A stretch of 64,000 nucleotides of DNA from Pseudomonas sp. GR 6-02. GTDB taxonomy: Bacteria; Pseudomonadota; Gammaproteobacteria; Pseudomonadales; Pseudomonadaceae. The stretch lies in contig NZ_CP011567.1 in NCBI RefSeq assembly GCF_001655615.1, forward strand, positions 1,993,001 through 2,057,000, read 5' to 3'. Below, piece by piece: positions 1 through 7,752 of the stretch (positions are counted from its first letter, which is position 1; each line of letters opens with the position of its first letter). The notes beneath the pieces are model-generated. The model did no database searches and had not been told where the DNA came from. It saw nothing but the letters and a program-made list of their open reading frames with translations. A program made the position numbers and the translations under genes.

Positions 1-182
1 CCGTGATACGAACGGGCTACCAAACCCGATCACTGTTTTTCAGTGACCGGGAAACGATAAAACCCGAGCCCAAAGCGCACAAGCCGGCGGATTCTGGCGC
101 AGGCGTAGGCAACGACGCAAGGCGTTGTAGCCTCGATGAAGTAACACCGGGTGTACTTAAACACGCAGCTAAACATCCAGGG
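1..182 (-). promoter_or_regulatory. Upstream half of a DUF6124-type structured leader (cut by window edge)
   Basis: This stretch matches, in the same orientation, the leaders read toward DUF6124 genes at 6990-7345 and 44485-44830. It contains the distal conserved block (about 71-182), a perfect hairpin TCACTG/CAGTGA (30-46) and the hairpin CGGG-UUUGGUAG-CCCG (13-28, minus-strand reading). The rest of the leader and the gene it serves would lie left of the window on the minus strand. That a DUF6124 gene lies there is inferred from the two complete copies. Confidence 0.6.
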
Positions 183-199
183 TAAGGCGAGCGGATATA

Positions 200-275
200 C
201 AGAGCTACGGCCTGCCTACGCACCAGGCTGGTAATATTCAGCAACTGCCGCCGCATAGGTGGCAACGGGTATCAT
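200..275 (+). pseudogene. Degenerate IS66 transposase C-terminal remnant
   Basis: Reading from 212, the frame gives LPTHQAGNIQQLPPHRWQ. This lines up with the C-terminal end of IS66 transposases (LPTQRASEIGELLPHRWQ), which also occurs intact at the end of the second remnant at 2299. Only about 20 codons survive and there is no open frame upstream. It is a decayed scar next to the DUF6124 leader. Confidence 0.5.
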
Positions 276-345
276 TAGGCAGAACGGTGTTCCCGGCACA
301 TCAGACCACCACATTCCCTTACTACGACGAAAGAGCTAAATCCCC

Positions 346-753
346 ATGAAAATGACTGTTAGCTGCACGTTTCAGATTACTGGCTGGGACGAGAAGCCGT
401 CTCAAGAACTTGAGGGCACTCCGAAACTCTCACACGCCAAAGTCACGCAGTCCTATTCTGGCGCCATCGAGGGAACAAGTAGCGTCGAATACCTCATGTC
501 TTATAGCGTCGACGGCACAGCTAGCTTTGTTGGTTTTGAGCGGATTTGTGGTGTGGTAGCAGGTAAGAGCGGAACATTTGTTGTTCGGCATTCGGGATCA
601 TTTTCGGAGGGAAAGGCACGCAGCACTTGGAGTGTCGTGAAGGGGGCAGGCACGGGGGATCTAGTCAATCTTAGCGGTAATGGTAACTACGTTGCTGGTC
701 ATGGTGAGCCGGCACAAGTGTCATTTGAATATTCGTTTGAACCTGACAGCTAA
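346..753 (+). CDS. DUF3224 domain protein
   Basis: A 135-residue protein covering the whole DUF3224 fold, a small beta-barrel family of unknown biochemical role. The family hallmarks can be read in order: F-x-ITGWDEKP near the N-terminus, a KVTQSYSGAIEGTSSVEYLM segment around residues 32-51, the GTASFVGFERICG strand around 58-70, and GKSGTFVVRHSG followed by ARSTWSVVKGAGTGDL. There is no signal peptide, so it is probably cytoplasmic. It stands alone on the plus strand between an IS66 scar and a convergent LysE-family gene, so context gives no function. The start is ATG after a weak purine stretch (acgacgaaagag). Confidence 0.8.
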   Translation: MKMTVSCTFQITGWDEKPSQELEGTPKLSHAKVTQSYSGAIEGTSSVEYLMSYSVDGTASFVGFERICGVVAGKSGTFVVRHSGSFSEGKARSTWSVVKGAGTGDLVNLSGNGNYVAGHGEPAQVSFEYSFEPDS

Positions 754-916
754 AGTGTATTGGCTGGACGCATCCACTCTGGCACAGCGATGCGATTATG
801 GGTGGGGGGTGTCCATCCCATTGCTTACGAAAGATCAGCCTTAAAGTCGTCAGCCTCATAATCACAGAAACCCTGCGAGGCTGGAATTCCAGCCCCGCAG
901 CGCCAAGACATTGATC

Positions 917-1543
917 CTATTTTTGGCTGAGCGCCGCTATCGATACTCCCGAAGCGACGAAGGTGAGTCCTGCCCCTACGTTCAGGCCATTTACCAGCCG
1001 TGGGCTCTGACGCAAAAATCGGGACAGTACAGTGGCAAATACGCCCATAAGTGCGAATCCCACTGCCGTAAGTGCGGCGAACCATATGCCGTACACCAGC
1101 ATCTGCACGCTCACTGAGCCGCGTTGTGGGTCGACGAACTGCGGGATGAACGCAAGGACGAAAAACCCAGGCTTCGGATTGAGTGCTGCCGAGAGTAATC
1201 CCGTGAGGAAAATGCTCGGCAGTGATTGCCGAGTCGCTGGCTGGAAGCTGATCAGGCTACGGGAGCGTAGGACTTTTATGCCAAGCCAAAGCAAATAACC
1301 GGCACCGATAAGCTTGACGACCCAGAAGGCAACTGCGGACGTCTGCATCAGCAAAGTCAGTCCTAGCGAAGCGGTTGCCACATGAAAGAGAATTCCCGCC
1401 CCGGATGCCATCCCCGACACGATAGCGGCGATCTTGCCCTGGCTGAGTCCTCGGCCTACGGCCAGCAGATTGTCCGGGCCTGGTGCGAGCACCAATAGCA
1501 AGCACGCGGCAGTATAGGCAAGCCAGATATTGATCGGAAACAC
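917..1543 (-). CDS. LysE/RhtB-family amino acid exporter
   Basis: A 208-residue inner-membrane protein of normal LysE/RhtB length with about six hydrophobic segments. The N-terminal family signature LAPGPDN is at about residues 19-25, and the second-half motif LNPKPGFFVLAFIPQF is near 120-135. The family exports amino acids or their derivatives by proton antiport; the substrate cannot be told. I chose the GTG at 1543 because AAGGAG sits six bases upstream and translation then begins directly in the first membrane helix. The frame stays open further upstream but without a ribosome site. It converges on the DUF3224 gene. Confidence 0.85.
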   Translation of the reverse strand: MFPINIWLAYTAACLLLVLAPGPDNLLAVGRGLSQGKIAAIVSGMASGAGILFHVATASLGLTLLMQTSAVAFWVVKLIGAGYLLWLGIKVLRSRSLISFQPATRQSLPSIFLTGLLSAALNPKPGFFVLAFIPQFVDPQRGSVSVQMLVYGIWFAALTAVGFALMGVFATVLSRFLRQSPRLVNGLNVGAGLTFVASGVSIAALSQK

Positions 1544-1640
1544 GGCATTCTCCTTAAGCCTCACCGAGGCATCCATCCTCACGTAGCGCCAGAATGTGCC
1601 CGTACCAGGCTGCAAAGTCAAAGCCACTGCATTGGAGAGT

Positions 1641-1883
1641 AACTTCAACCGCCGATTGACTCGTGCGTCTTAATGCAGAGTCGCAATCCTTCGACTTTCT
1701 CCAATCCTGATCCGGTCAAGCGCCCGGTTTAGAGCGTCCAAGGCATCAAGGAGAGCCTTCGCCTCAGCTTCCCGGCCATCACCCCAAAGGCGTTCTGCCA
1801 TTTTGTTCAGGGCCTGGATGGAGCGCTCAATTTCAGCAGCTGTCGCTACTTTGCTTTCCGGTTGTTTCTTCAGCATTGAGTAA
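1641..1883. repeat. Direct repeat copy 1 (small-gene module)
   Basis: About 240 bp closely similar to 7448-7690 in the same orientation, covering the small gene at 1670-1876, its ribosome site and about 30 bp beyond its stop. With the leader repeats (1-182 and about 7180-7360) it forms a pair of direct repeats around the accessory genes. Confidence 0.75.
1670..1876 (-). CDS. Small conserved helical protein of unknown function (copy 1)
   Basis: A 68-residue product (MLKKQPESKVATAAEIERS...) that is almost all predicted helix: charged and leucine/alanine rich, with an EIERSIQALNKMAERLW segment then a GREAEAKALLDALDALNRAL amphipathic helix. It differs by one residue near the C-terminus (IATLH against ISTLH) from the product of 7477-7683, so the protein is conserved while silent sites have changed, which argues that it is translated. 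The start is ATG at 1876 with AAGGG upstream. I recognise no named family. Confidence 0.6.
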   Translation of the reverse strand: MLKKQPESKVATAAEIERSIQALNKMAERLWGDGREAEAKALLDALDALNRALDRIRIGESRRIATLH

Positions 1884-1913
1884 CCCTTCTGCAGGGAAGA
1901 CACGAATTAATTT

Positions 1914-1949: not shown

Positions 1950-2089
1950 AATCGCCCAGCGCGAGCTTGTGCATGAAGGTTTGGGATTACCAAAGCCTTG
2001 GATTACAGCCTCAAGCACTGGGTTGCGTTGAGCCGTTATCTGAGCGACAGCACAGTTCCCATACAACAATCACATCGAAAATCAGATAC

Positions 2090-2299
2090 GACCATGAGCT
2101 CTTGGACGCAAAAAACTGGTTGTTTGCCGGATCGCTGCGCAGTGGAAAACGGGCGGAGGCGCTGATAAGCCTGATCCAGTCGGCCAAGCTCAACGGGCAT
2201 GATGTGTATGCATATTTGAAGGACGTTCTCACTCGCCTGCCGACGCAGCGGGCGAGTGAAATCGGGGAGTTGTTGCCGCATCGTTGGCAACCGGCTTAG
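2090..2299 (+). pseudogene. IS66-family transposase, C-terminal remnant
   Basis: The frame ending at 2299 carries KNWLFAGSLRSGKRAEAL, SLIQSAKLNGHDVYAYLKDV and LPTQRASEIGELLPHRWQPA, the invariant C-terminal tail of IS66 TnpC transposases (about 65 of over 500 residues). The DDE catalytic domain is absent, and residues encoded upstream of about 2100 do not look like transposase. It is an inert scar at the left border of the putative defence locus. Confidence 0.8.
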
Positions 2300-2432: not shown

Positions 2433-4343
2433 ATGAAAAAGCTGAAGCCTTGGGCGCGTGGGCCTTTGGAGCTCATCCGCCATGCCGAAGAACACCTAAA
2501 GGGGAGCAGTGACTTTGATAGACGAATGGTATTGGTAAGCTTCGACAATGCCATCGAGTTCTCAATTATCACCTTTCTATCTCTCAATCCCCTCCAGCGA
2601 AACGGCTGGCAATGTGAAAAAGCACAAGCTGGGAAATGGCTGCACAACTTCCATTCTAAACTTGAGTTTTTGGAGCACTATGTCATCTCGCAGCTCAAGC
2701 AAGAGATGCTCGTAGAGCGCGACGAGCTAGTTTACTACCACTCTATTCGAAATGAGCTTTACCACAATGGCAACGGTTTTACACCGACTCAGGAGATTGT
2801 CGAAGGCATTCGGGAGGCCTCGCATTGGGTATTTTCGGTGTTGTTCGGTAGCCAGCCCGGCGACCACCTAGCTTCATCGGGTGTTAAAGTACAAACATCT
2901 CTTCCGGTTGAGGAAGCGGGGCTGTCCTCGACGACGCTATTTCTGCAGACATTCATTGAAATGAAAAAATTACTGGGGGGGGAGGGGATCGCCAGCGATT
3001 CAGTCCAATCCCATTCGTTGATCAATATAATTCAGGCGTTAGCTAATCTCTATCCCATAGCCCTTCCAGAGGGGCTAATCCCTGCTGCCGAAAAGGCCGA
3101 ATCAATCAGAAACTCTATCGTTGACGGCGAAGAGTTGGCTTCATCGAACCTCGAGCTGAATACCCTATCATCTCAGCTCAAGGCATACTCTGCTCAGATT
3201 GATTCCAGCTTGCGTGCCTATCAGTTGGAACTTGTCCAAAAAGCGATTGCGGCTACAACTAAGTCAATACCTCCATATGTAAATCGACGCGTAGGTGTCA
3301 TTCATCAAATGATGGGTACTGGCATTAGTCTTTCTATTATTTCCTTTTTGGTTCGTGCTCGACAAATTTCAGGGTTAGAGCGAATTCCATTTATTGTGGT
3401 TGGTTTGAATAGAGTGTTTTTGGCGCAACTTAAACAACGTTTTATTGAACACTGCCCCGACCACTTGGTATTGCGGGCGGTGCTCCCGAGAAGCTCATCT
3501 ACTCTACTCCAAGTACTCTCTACAAGTGATCCTGGTGTGGTTTTCACGACGCTGGCGCAACTTAGAATTCATCATCCTGCGTTTGATGGGCATTGTTTGT
3601 TACTTGGCGTGGATTTGAATAATGTTCAGTTTGATCTAAAGAAGTCAGTGCCAAACGCAACTTTTATTAACTTTACAAGTGCTCCGGCTCGGCGGAAACA
3701 TGTTGTCGACACGAACTTCGGTGACCTGCTGGCTAGTTTCGATCTGGGTCAGGCAGTAGAGTTTGGGTTGGTTGCTCCAATAGCTCTAGAAACTCGGCCG
3801 GTGACGGTAATCAGAAGGGAGGTGGAGGCGACGCAGTTGTTAGCAATCGAGGAGATTTCTGAAAGCTCTCGTTGCGAGTCGATTGTATGCAGCATTTCTT
3901 CTGATATAAAGGATTTCGCTAAAAAGCGCTGTAGATTAATTGTGATCGCTAACAAGGTTTCCAGCGCGTTTTTTCTGCGTGATAAGCTGATTGAGATATT
4001 ACATGATCCAAGAGTACAGGGCGAACCCTCCGTGAATGTGGGGTTGGTCTCAAGCACAGTCGAAGACGGAGGTCGCGACGCTATTGATGTATTTAATTGT
4101 GATACTGCTCCTATATCGGTGCTCGTGATCACTAACGGCATGCTGGCGGGCTTGGATTTGATCGACGTAGATATAGCTTATGTTACGAGTTTACTGAAGG
4201 TAGAACTTCAACATAAGGTGGCCAGTTTGCTGGGGCTAAATGGAGTCTCAATGGCGCGAAAAGTTGTTGATTTCACCAGTAACGAGTGGTCCGAACTTAT
4301 GGCTCATTACGACCCCATGAAGCTAGATCCTAATGCAAATTAA
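2433..4343 (+). CDS. HEPN domain fused to degenerate HsdR-like SF2 helicase (putative defence protein)
   Basis: A 636-residue protein not assigned to any named family. Residues 1-140 look like a HEPN domain: all-helical, with the ribonuclease motif RNxxxH as RNELYH at about 106-111. Residues about 262-610 follow the order of a type I restriction HsdR helicase: an AYQLELVQKAI entry helix, a Walker A equivalent MMGTGIS (about 293-299), a DEAD-box equivalent LLLGVDLNN (about 389-397), the HsdR-like stretch NFGDLLASFDLGQAVEFGLVAP (about 428), and a motif V equivalent NGMLAGLD (about 568-575). The Walker lysine is isoleucine and the DEAH box is lost, so ATP hydrolysis is unlikely. AAGGAG at 2423-2428 favours ATG 2433 (or 2430) over an upstream TTG. 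It is AT-richer than the core genes and followed 233 bp later by a protease gene. HEPN and HsdR assignments are motif readings. Confidence 0.6.
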   Translation: MKKLKPWARGPLELIRHAEEHLKGSSDFDRRMVLVSFDNAIEFSIITFLSLNPLQRNGWQCEKAQAGKWLHNFHSKLEFLEHYVISQLKQEMLVERDELVYYHSIRNELYHNGNGFTPTQEIVEGIREASHWVFSVLFGSQPGDHLASSGVKVQTSLPVEEAGLSSTTLFLQTFIEMKKLLGGEGIASDSVQSHSLINIIQALANLYPIALPEGLIPAAEKAESIRNSIVDGEELASSNLELNTLSSQLKAYSAQIDSSLRAYQLELVQKAIAATTKSIPPYVNRRVGVIHQMMGTGISLSIISFLVRARQISGLERIPFIVVGLNRVFLAQLKQRFIEHCPDHLVLRAVLPRSSSTLLQVLSTSDPGVVFTTLAQLRIHHPAFDGHCLLLGVDLNNVQFDLKKSVPNATFINFTSAPARRKHVVDTNFGDLLASFDLGQAVEFGLVAPIALETRPVTVIRREVEATQLLAIEEISESSRCESIVCSISSDIKDFAKKRCRLIVIANKVSSAFFLRDKLIEILHDPRVQGEPSVNVGLVSSTVEDGGRDAIDVFNCDTAPISVLVITNGMLAGLDLIDVDIAYVTSLLKVELQHKVASLLGLNGVSMARKVVDFTSNEWSELMAHYDPMKLDPNAN

Positions 4344-4576
4344 TCGAGCCTGCATTTGTAGTTTAATAAGATGGGGGCGTCTCGTGGAGGAGTTTTCAAG
4401 TAAAACCGTCTTTTTCTGTCTAAGGCTACCGCGTGGGCGCATGTAGGAGAGATGCATAAGTGGCTTGTATGTTAATAAGGTTGACGCGGCTTTTTTAGGT
4501 TGGTCGTTGTTGCTGTTAATTCAGGATGTGTATGGTGCAATGGCTAGGTGTTTATATAAAGATTTTGTGAGGTTTT

Positions 4577-5512
4577 ATGAAGTGCAAAAAATTCGACTAT
4601 GATGCTCACTTCAATGATGCTGGTATAGGGTATGAAATTAGGGAAGAGTTGCAGGGTAAGCTTGAGAGGCAGTTAAATTTGATTGAGTTTATGGTTGATC
4701 GATTTAACGATAGTCTCAAAGGAGAGTCTCGCGTAGAGTTGATATTTTCAAGGGGGCTGGATGTTTCTCCAATGTCAAGTTCTACCTTTGCACACACCGT
4801 TAGATTTCCGGTGCAATTGGTTATTGAGTATTATGAGTTTCTCTCGACTTATTTTGGTGCGCCAAGCTTTGATCTAACAGGTCAGAGATGTCGACGCACT
4901 TCGATTGCTCTGATGTATGCTATTTCGCATGAATTGTCACATAATTTGAAAGGTCACAATAAAGTATCTTCTTGTGAGGGACTAACTACAGATGAGACCA
5001 GTTTGGCTGCTGAGACTGATGCAGATTTTTCAGCCGGTATGATGTGCTTCCTTTTTTATTTCAATAGTCAAGAAGGAGGCGAGATTGATCGTCTATTAAG
5101 TTTGACTAAAAACGCTGGTCCGCTGTTTCCATTTTGTAAAGATTCTGGCTACTCTGCCGTCATGCTGGCTTTTTTTTTGCATTGTAAAACTAAAGGTGGT
5201 GCTAGCAACTACCATAGCGCAAATATTCGATATAAGTTGCTAGCTGCTGGTGTTTTATTCGCAATTTTGAAAGTTGCTCCTAAGATGCAAGGGTTGTTGT
5301 TTTCAGGTGTAGATGAGGCCATCGAAGCACTTAGGGTGCTCGATTTTTCTTTACATAAAGAACACGTTGAAAGCTTTTTGGCTGACGACTATGCAGAGTT
5401 TTTGATAGCTACTACCACTACATCGGGAAACGTAGATAAATTGCGTGCCAAATGGGAGTCATCAAGCGATTTGATTGCAATAGCAAAAAAATATATGGCT
5501 GGTGGTATTTGA
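4577..5512 (+). CDS. Putative zinc metalloprotease with HExxH motif, partner of the HEPN-pseudohelicase
   Basis: A 311-residue soluble protein. The sequence SHELSHNLKGH gives HExxH (His118, Glu119, His122), and ETDAD at 146-150 supplies a plausible third zinc ligand and following acid, as in gluzincin-type and Lit-like phage-exclusion peptidases (HExxH...ExxxD). There is no signal peptide or clear membrane helix, so it should act in the cytoplasm. It is the next gene after the HEPN-pseudohelicase on the same strand and is strongly AT-rich, like recently acquired DNA. The ATG at 4577 follows a gtgagg stretch. A protease beside a HEPN nuclease suggests an abortive-infection pair in which one activates or degrades the other; this is inference. 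I do not recognise the exact family. Confidence 0.55.
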   Translation: MKCKKFDYDAHFNDAGIGYEIREELQGKLERQLNLIEFMVDRFNDSLKGESRVELIFSRGLDVSPMSSSTFAHTVRFPVQLVIEYYEFLSTYFGAPSFDLTGQRCRRTSIALMYAISHELSHNLKGHNKVSSCEGLTTDETSLAAETDADFSAGMMCFLFYFNSQEGGEIDRLLSLTKNAGPLFPFCKDSGYSAVMLAFFLHCKTKGGASNYHSANIRYKLLAAGVLFAILKVAPKMQGLLFSGVDEAIEALRVLDFSLHKEHVESFLADDYAEFLIATTTTSGNVDKLRAKWESSSDLIAIAKKYMAGGI

Positions 5513-6467: not shown

Positions 6468-6626
6468 TGGCCAAAAATACATTGCTAACCCGCTGCTTGC
6501 ATAGGTAGGTCCGACCCGACATGTAACTCTACGGTTGCAGAGTATCTGGATACGGATCGGGGTGACGCTGACTTTGAGACTATTCCCCGTGGCGATGGTA
6601 TGCACCCTCGCCACAGGGCACGACGA

Positions 6627-6989
6627 TTACTCCTTCAATTCGACGTGATCCAGTGCCTGGTTCACCGCCAGTTCACCGAGCATGACCACTTGCGCAATGC
6701 CCAGCAGGGTCTTGCGATGTGAGGTTTCCAGCAATGCTGCGAAATTGGTGAGCATGAGGGTGGCCGAGCCGAGTGTTTCGCTGGCGTTGGCCAGCAGGGA
6801 TTCGGTGTTGTACTTCGGGTTGGCGAGGTACATGGGCTCGGGTTCGTTGGCCGTGGCCATGATCTGGGCGGCCGGGTTGAGGTAATGGTCGAGGGCGCGT
6901 TCGGCGGCGGCGTGGAGCTTTTTTGAATCGAGGGATTCGTAGGGGGATGTCGGGTCTGTGACCGGCGGGTTGGGTGTAAGTTTGAACAT
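6627..6989 (-). CDS. DUF6124 family protein (copy A)
   Basis: A 120-residue protein with the DUF6124 layout: MFKLTPNPP start, SPYESLDSKKLHAAAERALDHYL at about 19-41, then two helices with NTESLLANASETLGSATLML and LLGIAQVVMLGELAVNQALD. There is no signal or membrane segment. The family is common in Pseudomonas and has no known function. The ATG at 6989 is preceded by TTAGGAA with good spacing, so a TTG nine codons upstream was rejected. It has a 356-base leader with covarying helices (6990-7345). A paralog is at 44125-44484. Confidence 0.85.
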   Translation of the reverse strand: MFKLTPNPPVTDPTSPYESLDSKKLHAAAERALDHYLNPAAQIMATANEPEPMYLANPKYNTESLLANASETLGSATLMLTNFAALLETSHRKTLLGIAQVVMLGELAVNQALDHVELKE

Positions 6990-7345
6990 ATGCTGTATTC
7001 CTAAGTTGAGTGCCAACCTTTTTGCTACTAAACGAAAAGGGTGGCAGCTGTACGCAGGTTAGTAGACCGGGGAATATCAGCAAAGCCGGCGCGCCCGAGG
7101 GCGCCCTACGTACAGCCACCATCAAAATTCAGATATGGAAATACCTGTCTGACGGATGCACGTGCAACCAATATTGCCACAGGCTACTAAACCCGATCAC
7201 TGATGGGCAGTGACACGAATCAAGTTACCGATGGGCCTCAAAGCGCACAAGCCGGCGGATTCTGGCGCAGGCGTAGGCAACGACGCAAGACGTTGTAGCC
7301 TCGATGAAGTAACACCGGGTGTACTTAAACGCGCAGCTAAACATC
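6990..7345 (-). promoter_or_regulatory. Structured mRNA leader of DUF6124 gene copy A (candidate cis-regulatory RNA)
   Basis: Read on the minus strand, in order: a conserved distal block (about 7345-7240), hairpin TCACTG/CAGTGA (7197-7213), hairpin CGGG-UUUAGUAG-CCUG (7180-7195), a long helix pairing 7105-7120 with 7040-7058 (16 pairs with a 3-base bulge) that encloses a GC-rich hairpin, a CUACUAACC segment (7057-7065), a second hairpin with the same UUUAGUAG loop closed by CCUUUU/AAAAGG (7017-7040), then the ribosome site. The copy at 44485-44830 has the same parts, with base changes that keep the pairs. The RNA function is inferred from covariation; the transcript start is unknown. Confidence 0.65.
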
Positions 7346-7447
7346 TATGGGTAAGGTGAGTCTTTTTCGGATCCGACCGTCTCTGGGCTCGGCGACTTGC
7401 TTGCTGTTCGTTAGCGTCGATCCAACCTGGGTTATTCGCCCAGCCTT

Positions 7448-7690
7448 CACCTCAACCGCCGATTGACTCATTCATCTTAATGGAGAGTTGAAATCCTTCG
7501 ACTCTCTCCAATCCTGATCCGATCAAGTGCCCGGTTTAACGCGTCCAAGGCATCAAGCAGGGCTTTCGCCTCAGCTTCCCGGCCATCACCCCAAAGGCGT
7601 TCTGCCATTTTGTTCAGGGCCTGGATGGAGCGCTCAATTTCAGCAGCAGTCGCTACTTTGCTTTCCGGCTGTTTCTTCAGCATTGAGTAA
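7448..7690. repeat. Direct repeat copy 2 (small-gene module)
   Basis: Second copy of the roughly 240-bp block at 1641-1883, same orientation, covering the gene at 7477-7683. Here the small gene sits about 130 bp from the DUF6124 leader, whereas in copy 1 about 1.5 kb holding the DUF3224 and LysE genes separates them. Confidence 0.75.
7477..7683 (-). CDS. Small conserved helical protein of unknown function (copy 2)
   Basis: 68 residues, one substitution from the product of 1670-1876. It is a charged amphipathic helical protein with no recognised domain. It lies just upstream of the DUF6124 leader on the same strand, so the two may be co-transcribed. The start is ATG at 7683; the preceding sequence (gaaagcaggttactca, minus strand) holds AGG at usable spacing. 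Confidence 0.6.
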   Translation of the reverse strand: MLKKQPESKVATAAEIERSIQALNKMAERLWGDGREAEAKALLDALDALNRALDRIRIGESRRISTLH

Positions 7691-7752
7691 CCTGCTTTCA
7701 GTTGCTAGCCCAAGAGTATCGGCCACCAGGGACAACTACCCCTAGCCAGATA

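What the first reader, a model, noticed from the sequence alone, without database searches (positions are those of the whole stretch)
2433..5512. Candidate new two-gene defence system: HEPN-pseudohelicase plus HExxH metalloprotease
Seen: two same-strand AT-rich genes bordered by an IS66 scar. The first carries RNELYH, the RNxxxH ribonuclease motif of HEPN domains, joined to an HsdR-like region; the second carries HELSH plus ETDAD, a zinc-protease layout. Known: HEPN RNases and Lit-type HExxH proteases both act in abortive infection. Inferred: the helicase-like part senses foreign nucleic acid and controls the HEPN RNase, with the protease as activator or second effector. I know of no described system with this pair.
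Basis: partly seen in the sequence, partly recalled or inferred. Interest (0 to 1): 0.82.

Follow-up and report, generated by a model that had tools for sequence, protein, structure and literature searches.

The report
HEPN ribonuclease with dead restriction motor
A bacterial gene joins a likely RNA-cutting domain to a worn-out second copy and to a broken DNA motor of restriction enzymes, probably as a self-contained anti-virus alarm; the protease-like gene beside it looks like a separate passenger.

Summary
Both genes and both motifs are there. Gene 1 (2433-4343, 636 aa) has three modules: a HEPN-like domain whose R106 and H111 are invariant in 45 of 45 aligned relatives; a second HEPN domain that has lost its histidine (0 of 15 motor-fused relatives keep it, 15 of 16 relatives without motor do); and a full SF2 fold homologous to the HsdR motor of type I restriction enzymes, with DEAH lost in 12 of 12 and the Walker lysine in 11 of 12. 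Other relatives of the first module lie directly before an hsdR gene in 8 of 44 loci. No type I system was detected in the host, so the protein probably works alone. I infer a single-gene abortive-infection protein in which dead domains restrain one live RNase. Gene 2 (4577-5512) is a rare zinc-protease-like protein (5 known) with a Lit-like site, below every family cut-off; its model is unusable. No gene-2 relative was found in the 44 loci, and the motor fusion stands without it in the 3 loci where it could be read, so the two-gene system is not supported; the nearest relatives could not be checked. HEPN-helicase fusions are already described; this is a new variant.

The parts
2433..4343 (+). 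Gene 1: HEPN-like domain A, degenerate HEPN domain B, degenerate HsdR/SWI2-SNF2 motor (636 aa; ATG at 2430 also possible)
2433..2852 (+). HEPN-like module A (residues 1-140): helices 6-22, 27-50 (with D38, E42), insert helices 53-87, 96-111 (ending in RNELYH), 120-138
   Evidence: model block pLDDT 81-98 here; D38, E42, R106, H111 in 45 of 45 rows
2748..2765 (+). RNELYH, predicted RNase motif (R106, H111)
2928..3266 (+). Module B (residues 166-278): HEPN domain that has lost its catalytic histidine
   Evidence: Profile of the tandem relatives' second domain hits P0001 at 3.8e-9; hhalign probability 98.1; in the 7 of 10 relatives with a HEPN-family match, the match lies on that second domain; helices 166-183, 196-206, 215-230, 239-278
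3108..3128 (+). RNSIVDG (R226-G232): dead motif of module B; most tandem relatives have RNxxxH here
3201..4316 (+). Pseudo-motor: both RecA-like domains of an SF2 helicase (residues 257-628, overlapping the last helix of module B), homologous to HsdR, no HSDR_N domain
3312..3329 (+). Dead Walker A: MGTGIS where HsdR has QGSGKS
3609..3620 (+). Dead Walker B: VDLN where HsdR has DEAH
4577..5512 (+). Gene 2: 311-aa zinc-protease-like protein, very rare; no Pfam, NCBIfam or PADLOC match at E up to 1; best PDB profile match E 0.14 to an unrelated protein
4928..4942 (+). HELSH (H118, E119, H122), with H127 nine residues after H118
   Evidence: invariant in 5 of 5 proteins
5012..5026 (+). ETDAD (E146, A149, D150), predicted third zinc ligand E146
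   Evidence: invariant in 5 of 5 proteins
1967..2299 (+). IS66 transposase C-terminal remnant (setting, not part of the system)
   Evidence: PF13817 E 1.1e-16
12..1885 (.). Left copies of duplicated flanking DNA (12-47, 71-182, 1642-1885; setting)
7179..7692 (.). Right copies of the same duplicated DNA (7179-7214, 7239-7350, 7449-7692; setting)

Best explanation
Gene 1 is a self-contained abortive-infection protein. Module A is a HEPN-type RNase with an intact motif. Behind it sit two worn-out partners: a second HEPN domain without its histidine, and an HsdR motor that kept the two-RecA fold but lost its ATPase residues (both shown by alignment). I infer that A and B form a two-domain HEPN unit with one live half, that the dead motor keeps it silent, and that binding of a phage-made nucleic acid or protein to the dead motor releases it to cut cellular RNA and stop the infected cell. 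Gene 2 is most likely an independent passenger in the same accessory region, perhaps a Lit-like zinc protease acting on its own.
For: Module A: R106/H111 invariant in 45 of 45 rows, of which 13 lack L109 and so were not picked by the RNELYH scan pattern; helix order, acidic residues in helix 2, helical insert and motif at the end of helix 3 fit the published HEPN description; it sits next to a profile-recognised HEPN domain in tandem relatives. Module B: tandem-relative profile hits 13 of 15 motor-fused rows at E up to 0.001, P0001 at 3.8e-9, and 0 of 14 single-HEPN rows; hhalign probability 98.1; its histidine is present in 15 of 16 tandem rows and 0 of 15 motor-fused rows. Motor: PF18766; family profile hits R subunit 3h1t at 8.8e-11; Foldseek lists EcoR124I HsdR at 1.7e-9; DEAH lost 12 of 12, Walker lysine 11 of 12, first motif-VI Arg 11 of 12, against 7 of 7 HsdR rows with both Walker motifs (6 readable for motif VI). 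Link to restriction: module A alone directly before an hsdR gene in 8 of 44 loci, type I genes in 12 of 44. Works alone: no HSDR_N or N6_Mtase match in the genome, controls ring in 9 and 13 of 14; fused gene without hsdM or hsdS matches in L002-L004. Defence setting.
Against: No activity, toxicity or phage phenotype is known. Module A itself matches no Pfam HEPN model: the HEPN matches I could place in relatives (in 7 of 10 looked at, and L006) all fall on module B, and even those are below Pfam's cut-offs (best 25.2 against 28.4 bits). The structure search barely tested residues before 254. P0005 keeps GSGK, motif V GxD stays in 11 of 12 and the last motif-VI Arg in 10 of 12, so nucleotide binding is not excluded. 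Only 4 of 44 loci carry the motor fusion, one of them broken (L005). No full-length relative was found in the phage, plasmid or viral collections.
Confidence: 0.5

Rival explanations
1. Two-gene system: gene 2 cleaves gene 1 (or its inhibitor) to activate the HEPN RNase, or is a second effector.
For: Adjacent, same strand, both AT-rich; the nearest gene-1 and gene-2 relatives could not be checked for pairing.
Against: 0 of 44 loci with the HEPN module hold a gene-2 relative; L002-L004 carry the fused gene without it; 233-nt gap; 5 gene-2 proteins known against 12 HEPN-motor proteins plus the shorter P0012; apart from the window's own contig no longest-contig length is shared between the two lists (weak).
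Confidence: 0.1
2. Gene 1 is not a defence gene but a regulator or RNA-processing factor (HEPN-style RNA binding plus a nucleic-acid-sensing helicase fold).
For: Some HEPN proteins are regulators (MtlR discussed in PMC3710099); module A has no HEPN profile match; no phenotype known.
Against: Patchy distribution: strong match only in G000 among 398 and among 329 genus members drawn (overlapping draws); RNxxxH motif kept in module A while module B and the motor decay; accessory region with a defence-like gene upstream.
Confidence: 0.16
3. Gene 1 is a decaying remnant with no present function.
For: Walker motifs and the module-B histidine lost; no type I genes detected in the host.
Against: Full ORF; DEAH is lost in 12 of 12 rows (the others 25-55% identical to gene 1) while module-A residues are invariant; the motor-fused rows form one supported group, 96/98, so the loss is old and the protein persists; fold intact at mean pLDDT 87.5.
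Confidence: 0.06
4. The motor part still works as a nucleotide-dependent switch through non-canonical residues.
For: Motif V GxD kept in 11 of 12, GxG of motif I kept in 12 of 12, P0005 keeps the lysine.
Against: DEAH lost in 12 of 12.
Confidence: 0.12

Closest known systems
HEPN fusions to R-M helicases, e.g. Swt1-like HEPN with SWI2/SNF2-ATPase (WQE_15321), in Anantharaman et al. 2013, PMC3710099 (Table 1 and passages read)
   Same: HEPN domain joined to an SF2 helicase of the kind used by R-M systems; proposed multi-pronged defence
   Different: Here motor and second HEPN are dead in the family rows examined (one row keeps the Walker lysine), and no type I genes were detected in the host; whether WQE_15321 is a relative was not tested
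HEPN dyads (Swt1, Csx1 of MJ1666 type; PMC3710099 Table 1)
   Same: Two HEPN domains in one chain
   Different: Here one half is intact and the other dead, and a dead helicase follows
PrrC-EcoprrI (HEPN anticodon nuclease held silent by a type I R-M complex; as described in PMC3710099)
   Same: HEPN RNase tied to the type I restriction machinery; single-HEPN relatives of module A lie inside hsd operons
   Different: PrrC has an ABC ATPase and a partner R-M system in trans; gene 1 has its own dead motor in cis and no detected type I system in the genome
HsdR motor subunit of type I restriction enzymes (EcoR124I, 2w00)
   Same: Sequence and fold of both RecA domains
   Different: No HSDR_N domain, shorter, Walker A and B lost
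Lit / Peptidase_U49 (PF10463), for gene 2
   Same: HExxHxxxxH and ExxADxxA: 8 of the 9 residues invariant in the catalytic core of seven Lit-type proteins; hhalign aligns these residues, single-pair E 7.9e-4, better than M48 (5.6e-3) or M78 (0.018) alignments of 8 and 6 proteins
   Different: No PF10463 match at E up to 1; the Q before the glutamate is absent; the spacer is 6 residues longer; hhalign probability only 25%

Membership tests
HEPN superfamily (gene 1, module A) | Rx4-6H motif with polar residue after R | tested here: met
   RNELYH; R and H in 45 of 45 rows, N107 in 43 of 45, S in 2; A4 holds 28 of 44 loci and 17 of 18 protein-search rows
HEPN superfamily (gene 1, module A) | Two alpha-hairpins, insert between helices 2 and 3, motif at the end of helix 3, acidic residue in helix 2 | tested here: met
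   Model helices 6-22, 27-50, insert 53-87, 96-111, 120-138; D38 and E42 invariant against the description in PMC3710099
HEPN superfamily (gene 1, module A) | Recognised by a HEPN profile (divergent members often escape standard searches, by PMC3710099) | tested here: inconclusive
   None on module A in P0001; in the 7 of 10 relatives with HEPN-family matches these all fall after the RNELYH motif, on module B
HEPN superfamily (gene 1, module A) | Structural match to solved HEPN domains | tested here: inconclusive
   Whole-model search filled by the motor, residues 254-628
HEPN superfamily (gene 1, module B) | Profile match | tested here: inconclusive
   Homologous to a domain of tandem relatives that matches HEPN_RiboL-PSP (best 1.7e-5, below cut-off), Apea, HepT-like and others; an unrelated family, ExoD, also appears at about 0.01, on module A
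Active HEPN RNase (gene 1, module B) | Catalytic histidine of Rx4-6H | tested here: not met
   D231; lost in 15 of 15 motor-fused rows
Type I restriction R subunit (gene 1) | HSDR_N domain plus active SF2 motor | tested here: not met
   No HSDR_N; NCBIfam hsdR 28.2 bits against a cut-off of 284.55; Walker motifs lost
SWI2/SNF2 ATPase, PF18766 (gene 1) | Score above the Pfam cut-off | tested here: met
   39 against 26.7 bits
PrrC-type R-M-guarded nuclease (gene 1) | Linked type I R-M complex | tested here: not met
   No HSDR_N or N6_Mtase match in the genome; type I genes only beside relatives
Lit / Peptidase_U49 (gene 2) | Match to PF10463 | tested here: not met
Lit / Peptidase_U49 (gene 2) | Zinc site HExxH with downstream ExxAD | tested here: met
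Lit / Peptidase_U49 (gene 2) | Cleaves EF-Tu on a phage cue | not testable with these tools
   feature recalled, no call
Zinc metalloprotease fold (gene 2) | Confident predicted fold | tested here: inconclusive
   mean pLDDT 49 from 5 sequences; no PDB match at E up to 0.001

The most novel reading that the evidence does not exclude
The dead HsdR copy is an integrated decoy: it imitates the real restriction motor so that phage or plasmid anti-restriction proteins, or DNA intermediates that engage HsdR, bind it and thereby unleash the attached HEPN RNase, whose second half has died to become a fixed scaffold. It would be a bacterial counterpart of decoy domains in plant immune receptors (analogy recalled), guarding restriction itself in a cell in which no type I system was detected.
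Probability: 0.13. Interest if true: 0.82.

Novelty: new variant of a known kind. Interest (0 to 1): 0.55.

Why it matters
One live HEPN motif is kept while its HEPN partner and its restriction motor are both dead across a family whose located members include Pseudomonadota, Chloroflexota and a cyanobacterium. That is a clear, testable case of dead enzymes turned into the control part of a likely suicide RNase, and a way to ask whether bacteria use dead restriction subunits as decoys.

Tried and rejected
Two-gene unit: gene-2 relatives were sought in 95 relatives, 369 class members, 381 order members, the 44 HEPN loci, and plasmids, phages and viral contigs; in genomes only the window's own copy was found. 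The genome draws overlap. Gene 1 in two genus draws of 398 and 329 (at E up to 1e-20): the strong match is G000 only; the other 41 of 42 matches are weak hits (E 1e-6 to 9e-4) over parts of residues 239-478 to ORFs of 765-1388 aa.

The hsdR-adjacent proteins lack module B (0 of 14 single-HEPN rows hit its profile), and on a tree of module A the motor-fused rows form one group (96/98) while the hsdR-adjacent and P860 rows form another (100/99); their joining (88/21) is not supported. A tandem-HEPN ancestor that gained a motor fits better. At the same check I found that the Pfam HEPN matches, which I had credited to the RNELYH module, lie on module B wherever I could place them.

Lit as a family: Pfam no; single-sequence and profile comparisons weak, M48 and M78 as controls. 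PF10463 was found in 0 of 57 relatives and 1 of 299 phylum members, and its 14 control genomes did not ring.

Empty site: in G021 and G006 only the right flank from 7753 on aligns (an rpiR-like gene by recall); no match over 150 bases lies in the roughly 36 and 32 kb to its left, so no clean empty site was shown.

Papers: five literature searches were answered. I saw only their listings, except PMC3710099, of which I read passages and part 2 of 14 of section 3. I saw no report of this family in those listings; that is no proof of absence.

Rows left out: the motor alignment used P0001, P0003-P0011, P0013, P0014 (12 rows; P0012 and P0015-P0019 lack a full motor; L002-L005 not used) and the HsdR of 7 of the 10 loci that have one (L016, L025, L026 left out; L020's motif VI cut off by my slice). 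A4 left out 16 of 44 loci and P0016. The tree used those 45 rows. The locus scan used a pattern holding RNELYH or one around FDNAIE, so part of the motif conservation is by selection; 13 of 45 rows escape this.
Full report
Gene 1 and gene 2 are both open and full-length.

Gene 1, module A. The first 140 residues are the most conserved part: D38, E42, R106, Y110 and H111 in 45 of 45 rows. The model gives two helical hairpins with a helical insert, the motif closing the third main helix and the acidic residues in the second, as the HEPN survey describes. I found no Pfam HEPN match on this part.

Gene 1, module B. Between A and the motor, residues about 166-278 are homologous to a second domain found in 16 rows without motor (profile E 3.8e-9 for P0001; 13 of 15 motor-fused rows at E up to 0.001; P0004 and P0014 not; hhalign probability 98.1). 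In those rows it carries RNxxxH (histidine in 15 of 16, P0018 has N), and it is the part that Pfam HEPN families match, best 1.7e-5, below cut-off. In motor-fused rows the histidine is gone in 15 of 15, D in 8 of them, D231 in gene 1. So gene 1 is one kept HEPN motif, one dead HEPN and one dead motor.

Relatives. One scan of genome contigs gave 44 loci with module A. Their content: fused to an HsdR-like motor in 4 (L002-L005; L005 is broken into two ORFs, and L004's motor shows in the alignment but not by the HsdR query); directly before an hsdR gene in 8 (L007, L008, L012, L014, L016, L018, L022, L025; cut by the contig end in L016 and perhaps L014); next to or fused with an uncharacterised ~860-aa protein ('P860') in 10; before hsdM and hsdS in 1 (L006); no such partner in the other 21 (for L011 no ORF was assigned). 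Type I genes occur in 12 of 44. On a tree of module A the motor-fused rows are one group (96/98), the hsdR-adjacent and P860 rows another (100/99); the deeper order is not resolved. Module A has thus met HsdR both as a neighbour and as a fused domain, but a direct step from one to the other is not shown. In the present host HSDR_N and N6_Mtase give no match, with controls ringing in 9 and 13 of 14 genomes.

Gene 2. Five proteins are known including this one, with no Pfam, PADLOC or NCBIfam match at E up to 1 and no significant PDB match. HExxH and ETDAD are kept in 5 of 5. The layout resembles Lit-family proteins; profile comparison aligns the catalytic residues at a single-pair E of 7.9e-4, better than M48 or M78, but with probability 25% and no family membership. 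The structure model is unusable.

Pairing. No gene-2 relative is found in the 44 loci; L002-L004 carry the fused gene without it. Both genes are rare: in the genome draws only G000 has gene 2, and only G000 has a strong gene-1 match among the genus members drawn. Contigs of the nearest relatives could not be read, so pairing among them is untested.

Setting. An IS66 remnant lies at 1967-2299; duplicated DNA flanks the region. 719 to 7351 bases before the window lies a 2210-aa DUF4011/AAA/MTES_1575 protein matching PADLOC PDC-S37 and Hhe. Further left are genes that look like pheST and ihfA (recalled names) and a tRNA-Pro, 26 bases of which are repeated 4.4 kb downstream beside an integrase-like fragment (recalled). 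This looks like an accessory, defence-bearing region.

Mechanism. Shown: intact RNxxxH in a HEPN-like helix layout, dead second HEPN, dead HsdR-like motor, no detected type I system, occurrence without gene 2 in readable loci. Inferred: RNase activity, pairing of A with B, cis-inhibition by the motor, phage trigger, cell arrest; gene 2 as an independent passenger. The 2013 HEPN survey already reports HEPN fused to SWI2/SNF2 helicases, HEPN dyads, and an inactive helicase domain fused to HEPN in nematodes, so this is a new variant of a known kind.

Noticed in passing
L009:2290-5515, L013:2195-5432, L017:7986-11217, L019:3063-6270, L020:7983-11214, L023:3201-6441, L024:7983-11199, L026:7986-11202, L027:2318-5617 (fused), L043 (fragments): A single-HEPN gene overlapping or fused to a gene for an ~860-aa protein, in 10 of 44 loci, 3 of them with hsd genes. 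The two stand-alone ~860-aa proteins scanned (L017, L026) have no confident Pfam, NCBIfam or PADLOC match: a candidate uncharacterised two-gene defence unit.
   Followed up: partly
L086:5673-9215 (E. coli EC96, WP_096935339.1): A relative of the ~860-aa protein (52.9% identity to L026 over residues 318-1172) carries a different ~317-aa N-terminal part instead of HEPN, near phage genes and a tRNA-Thr: perhaps one sensor-like protein with exchangeable effectors.
   Followed up: partly
P0015, P0017, P0018, P0019, L006, L010, L015, L021, L028, L029, L031, L033, L036, L037, L039, L041: Tandem HEPN proteins without motor, second histidine kept in 15 of 16, several in short solo genes across several phyla; P0016 carries what looks like a GIY-YIG tail (recalled).
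   Followed up: partly
upstream of the window, L079:2649-9278 (window coordinates about -7351 to -719): 2210-aa DUF4011/SF1 helicase/MTES_1575 protein matching PADLOC PDC-S37 and Hhe.
   Followed up: no
L083:14305-14381 and window coordinate about -11209: tRNA-Pro(ggg) and a 26-base repeat of its 3' part 4.4 kb downstream, with an integrase-like fragment (recalled) next to it: perhaps an old integration scar.
   Followed up: partly
window 1642-1885 and 7449-7692; about -564 to 191 and 6589-7360: Duplicated segments with DUF6124 genes and a 68-aa ORF bracket the accessory genes, as if recombination between repeats built the region.
   Followed up: partly
L089, L092: In 2 of 7 plasmid pieces fetched the Lit-family gene overlaps an upstream hypothetical gene by 4 bases, hinting at a partner.
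   Followed up: no
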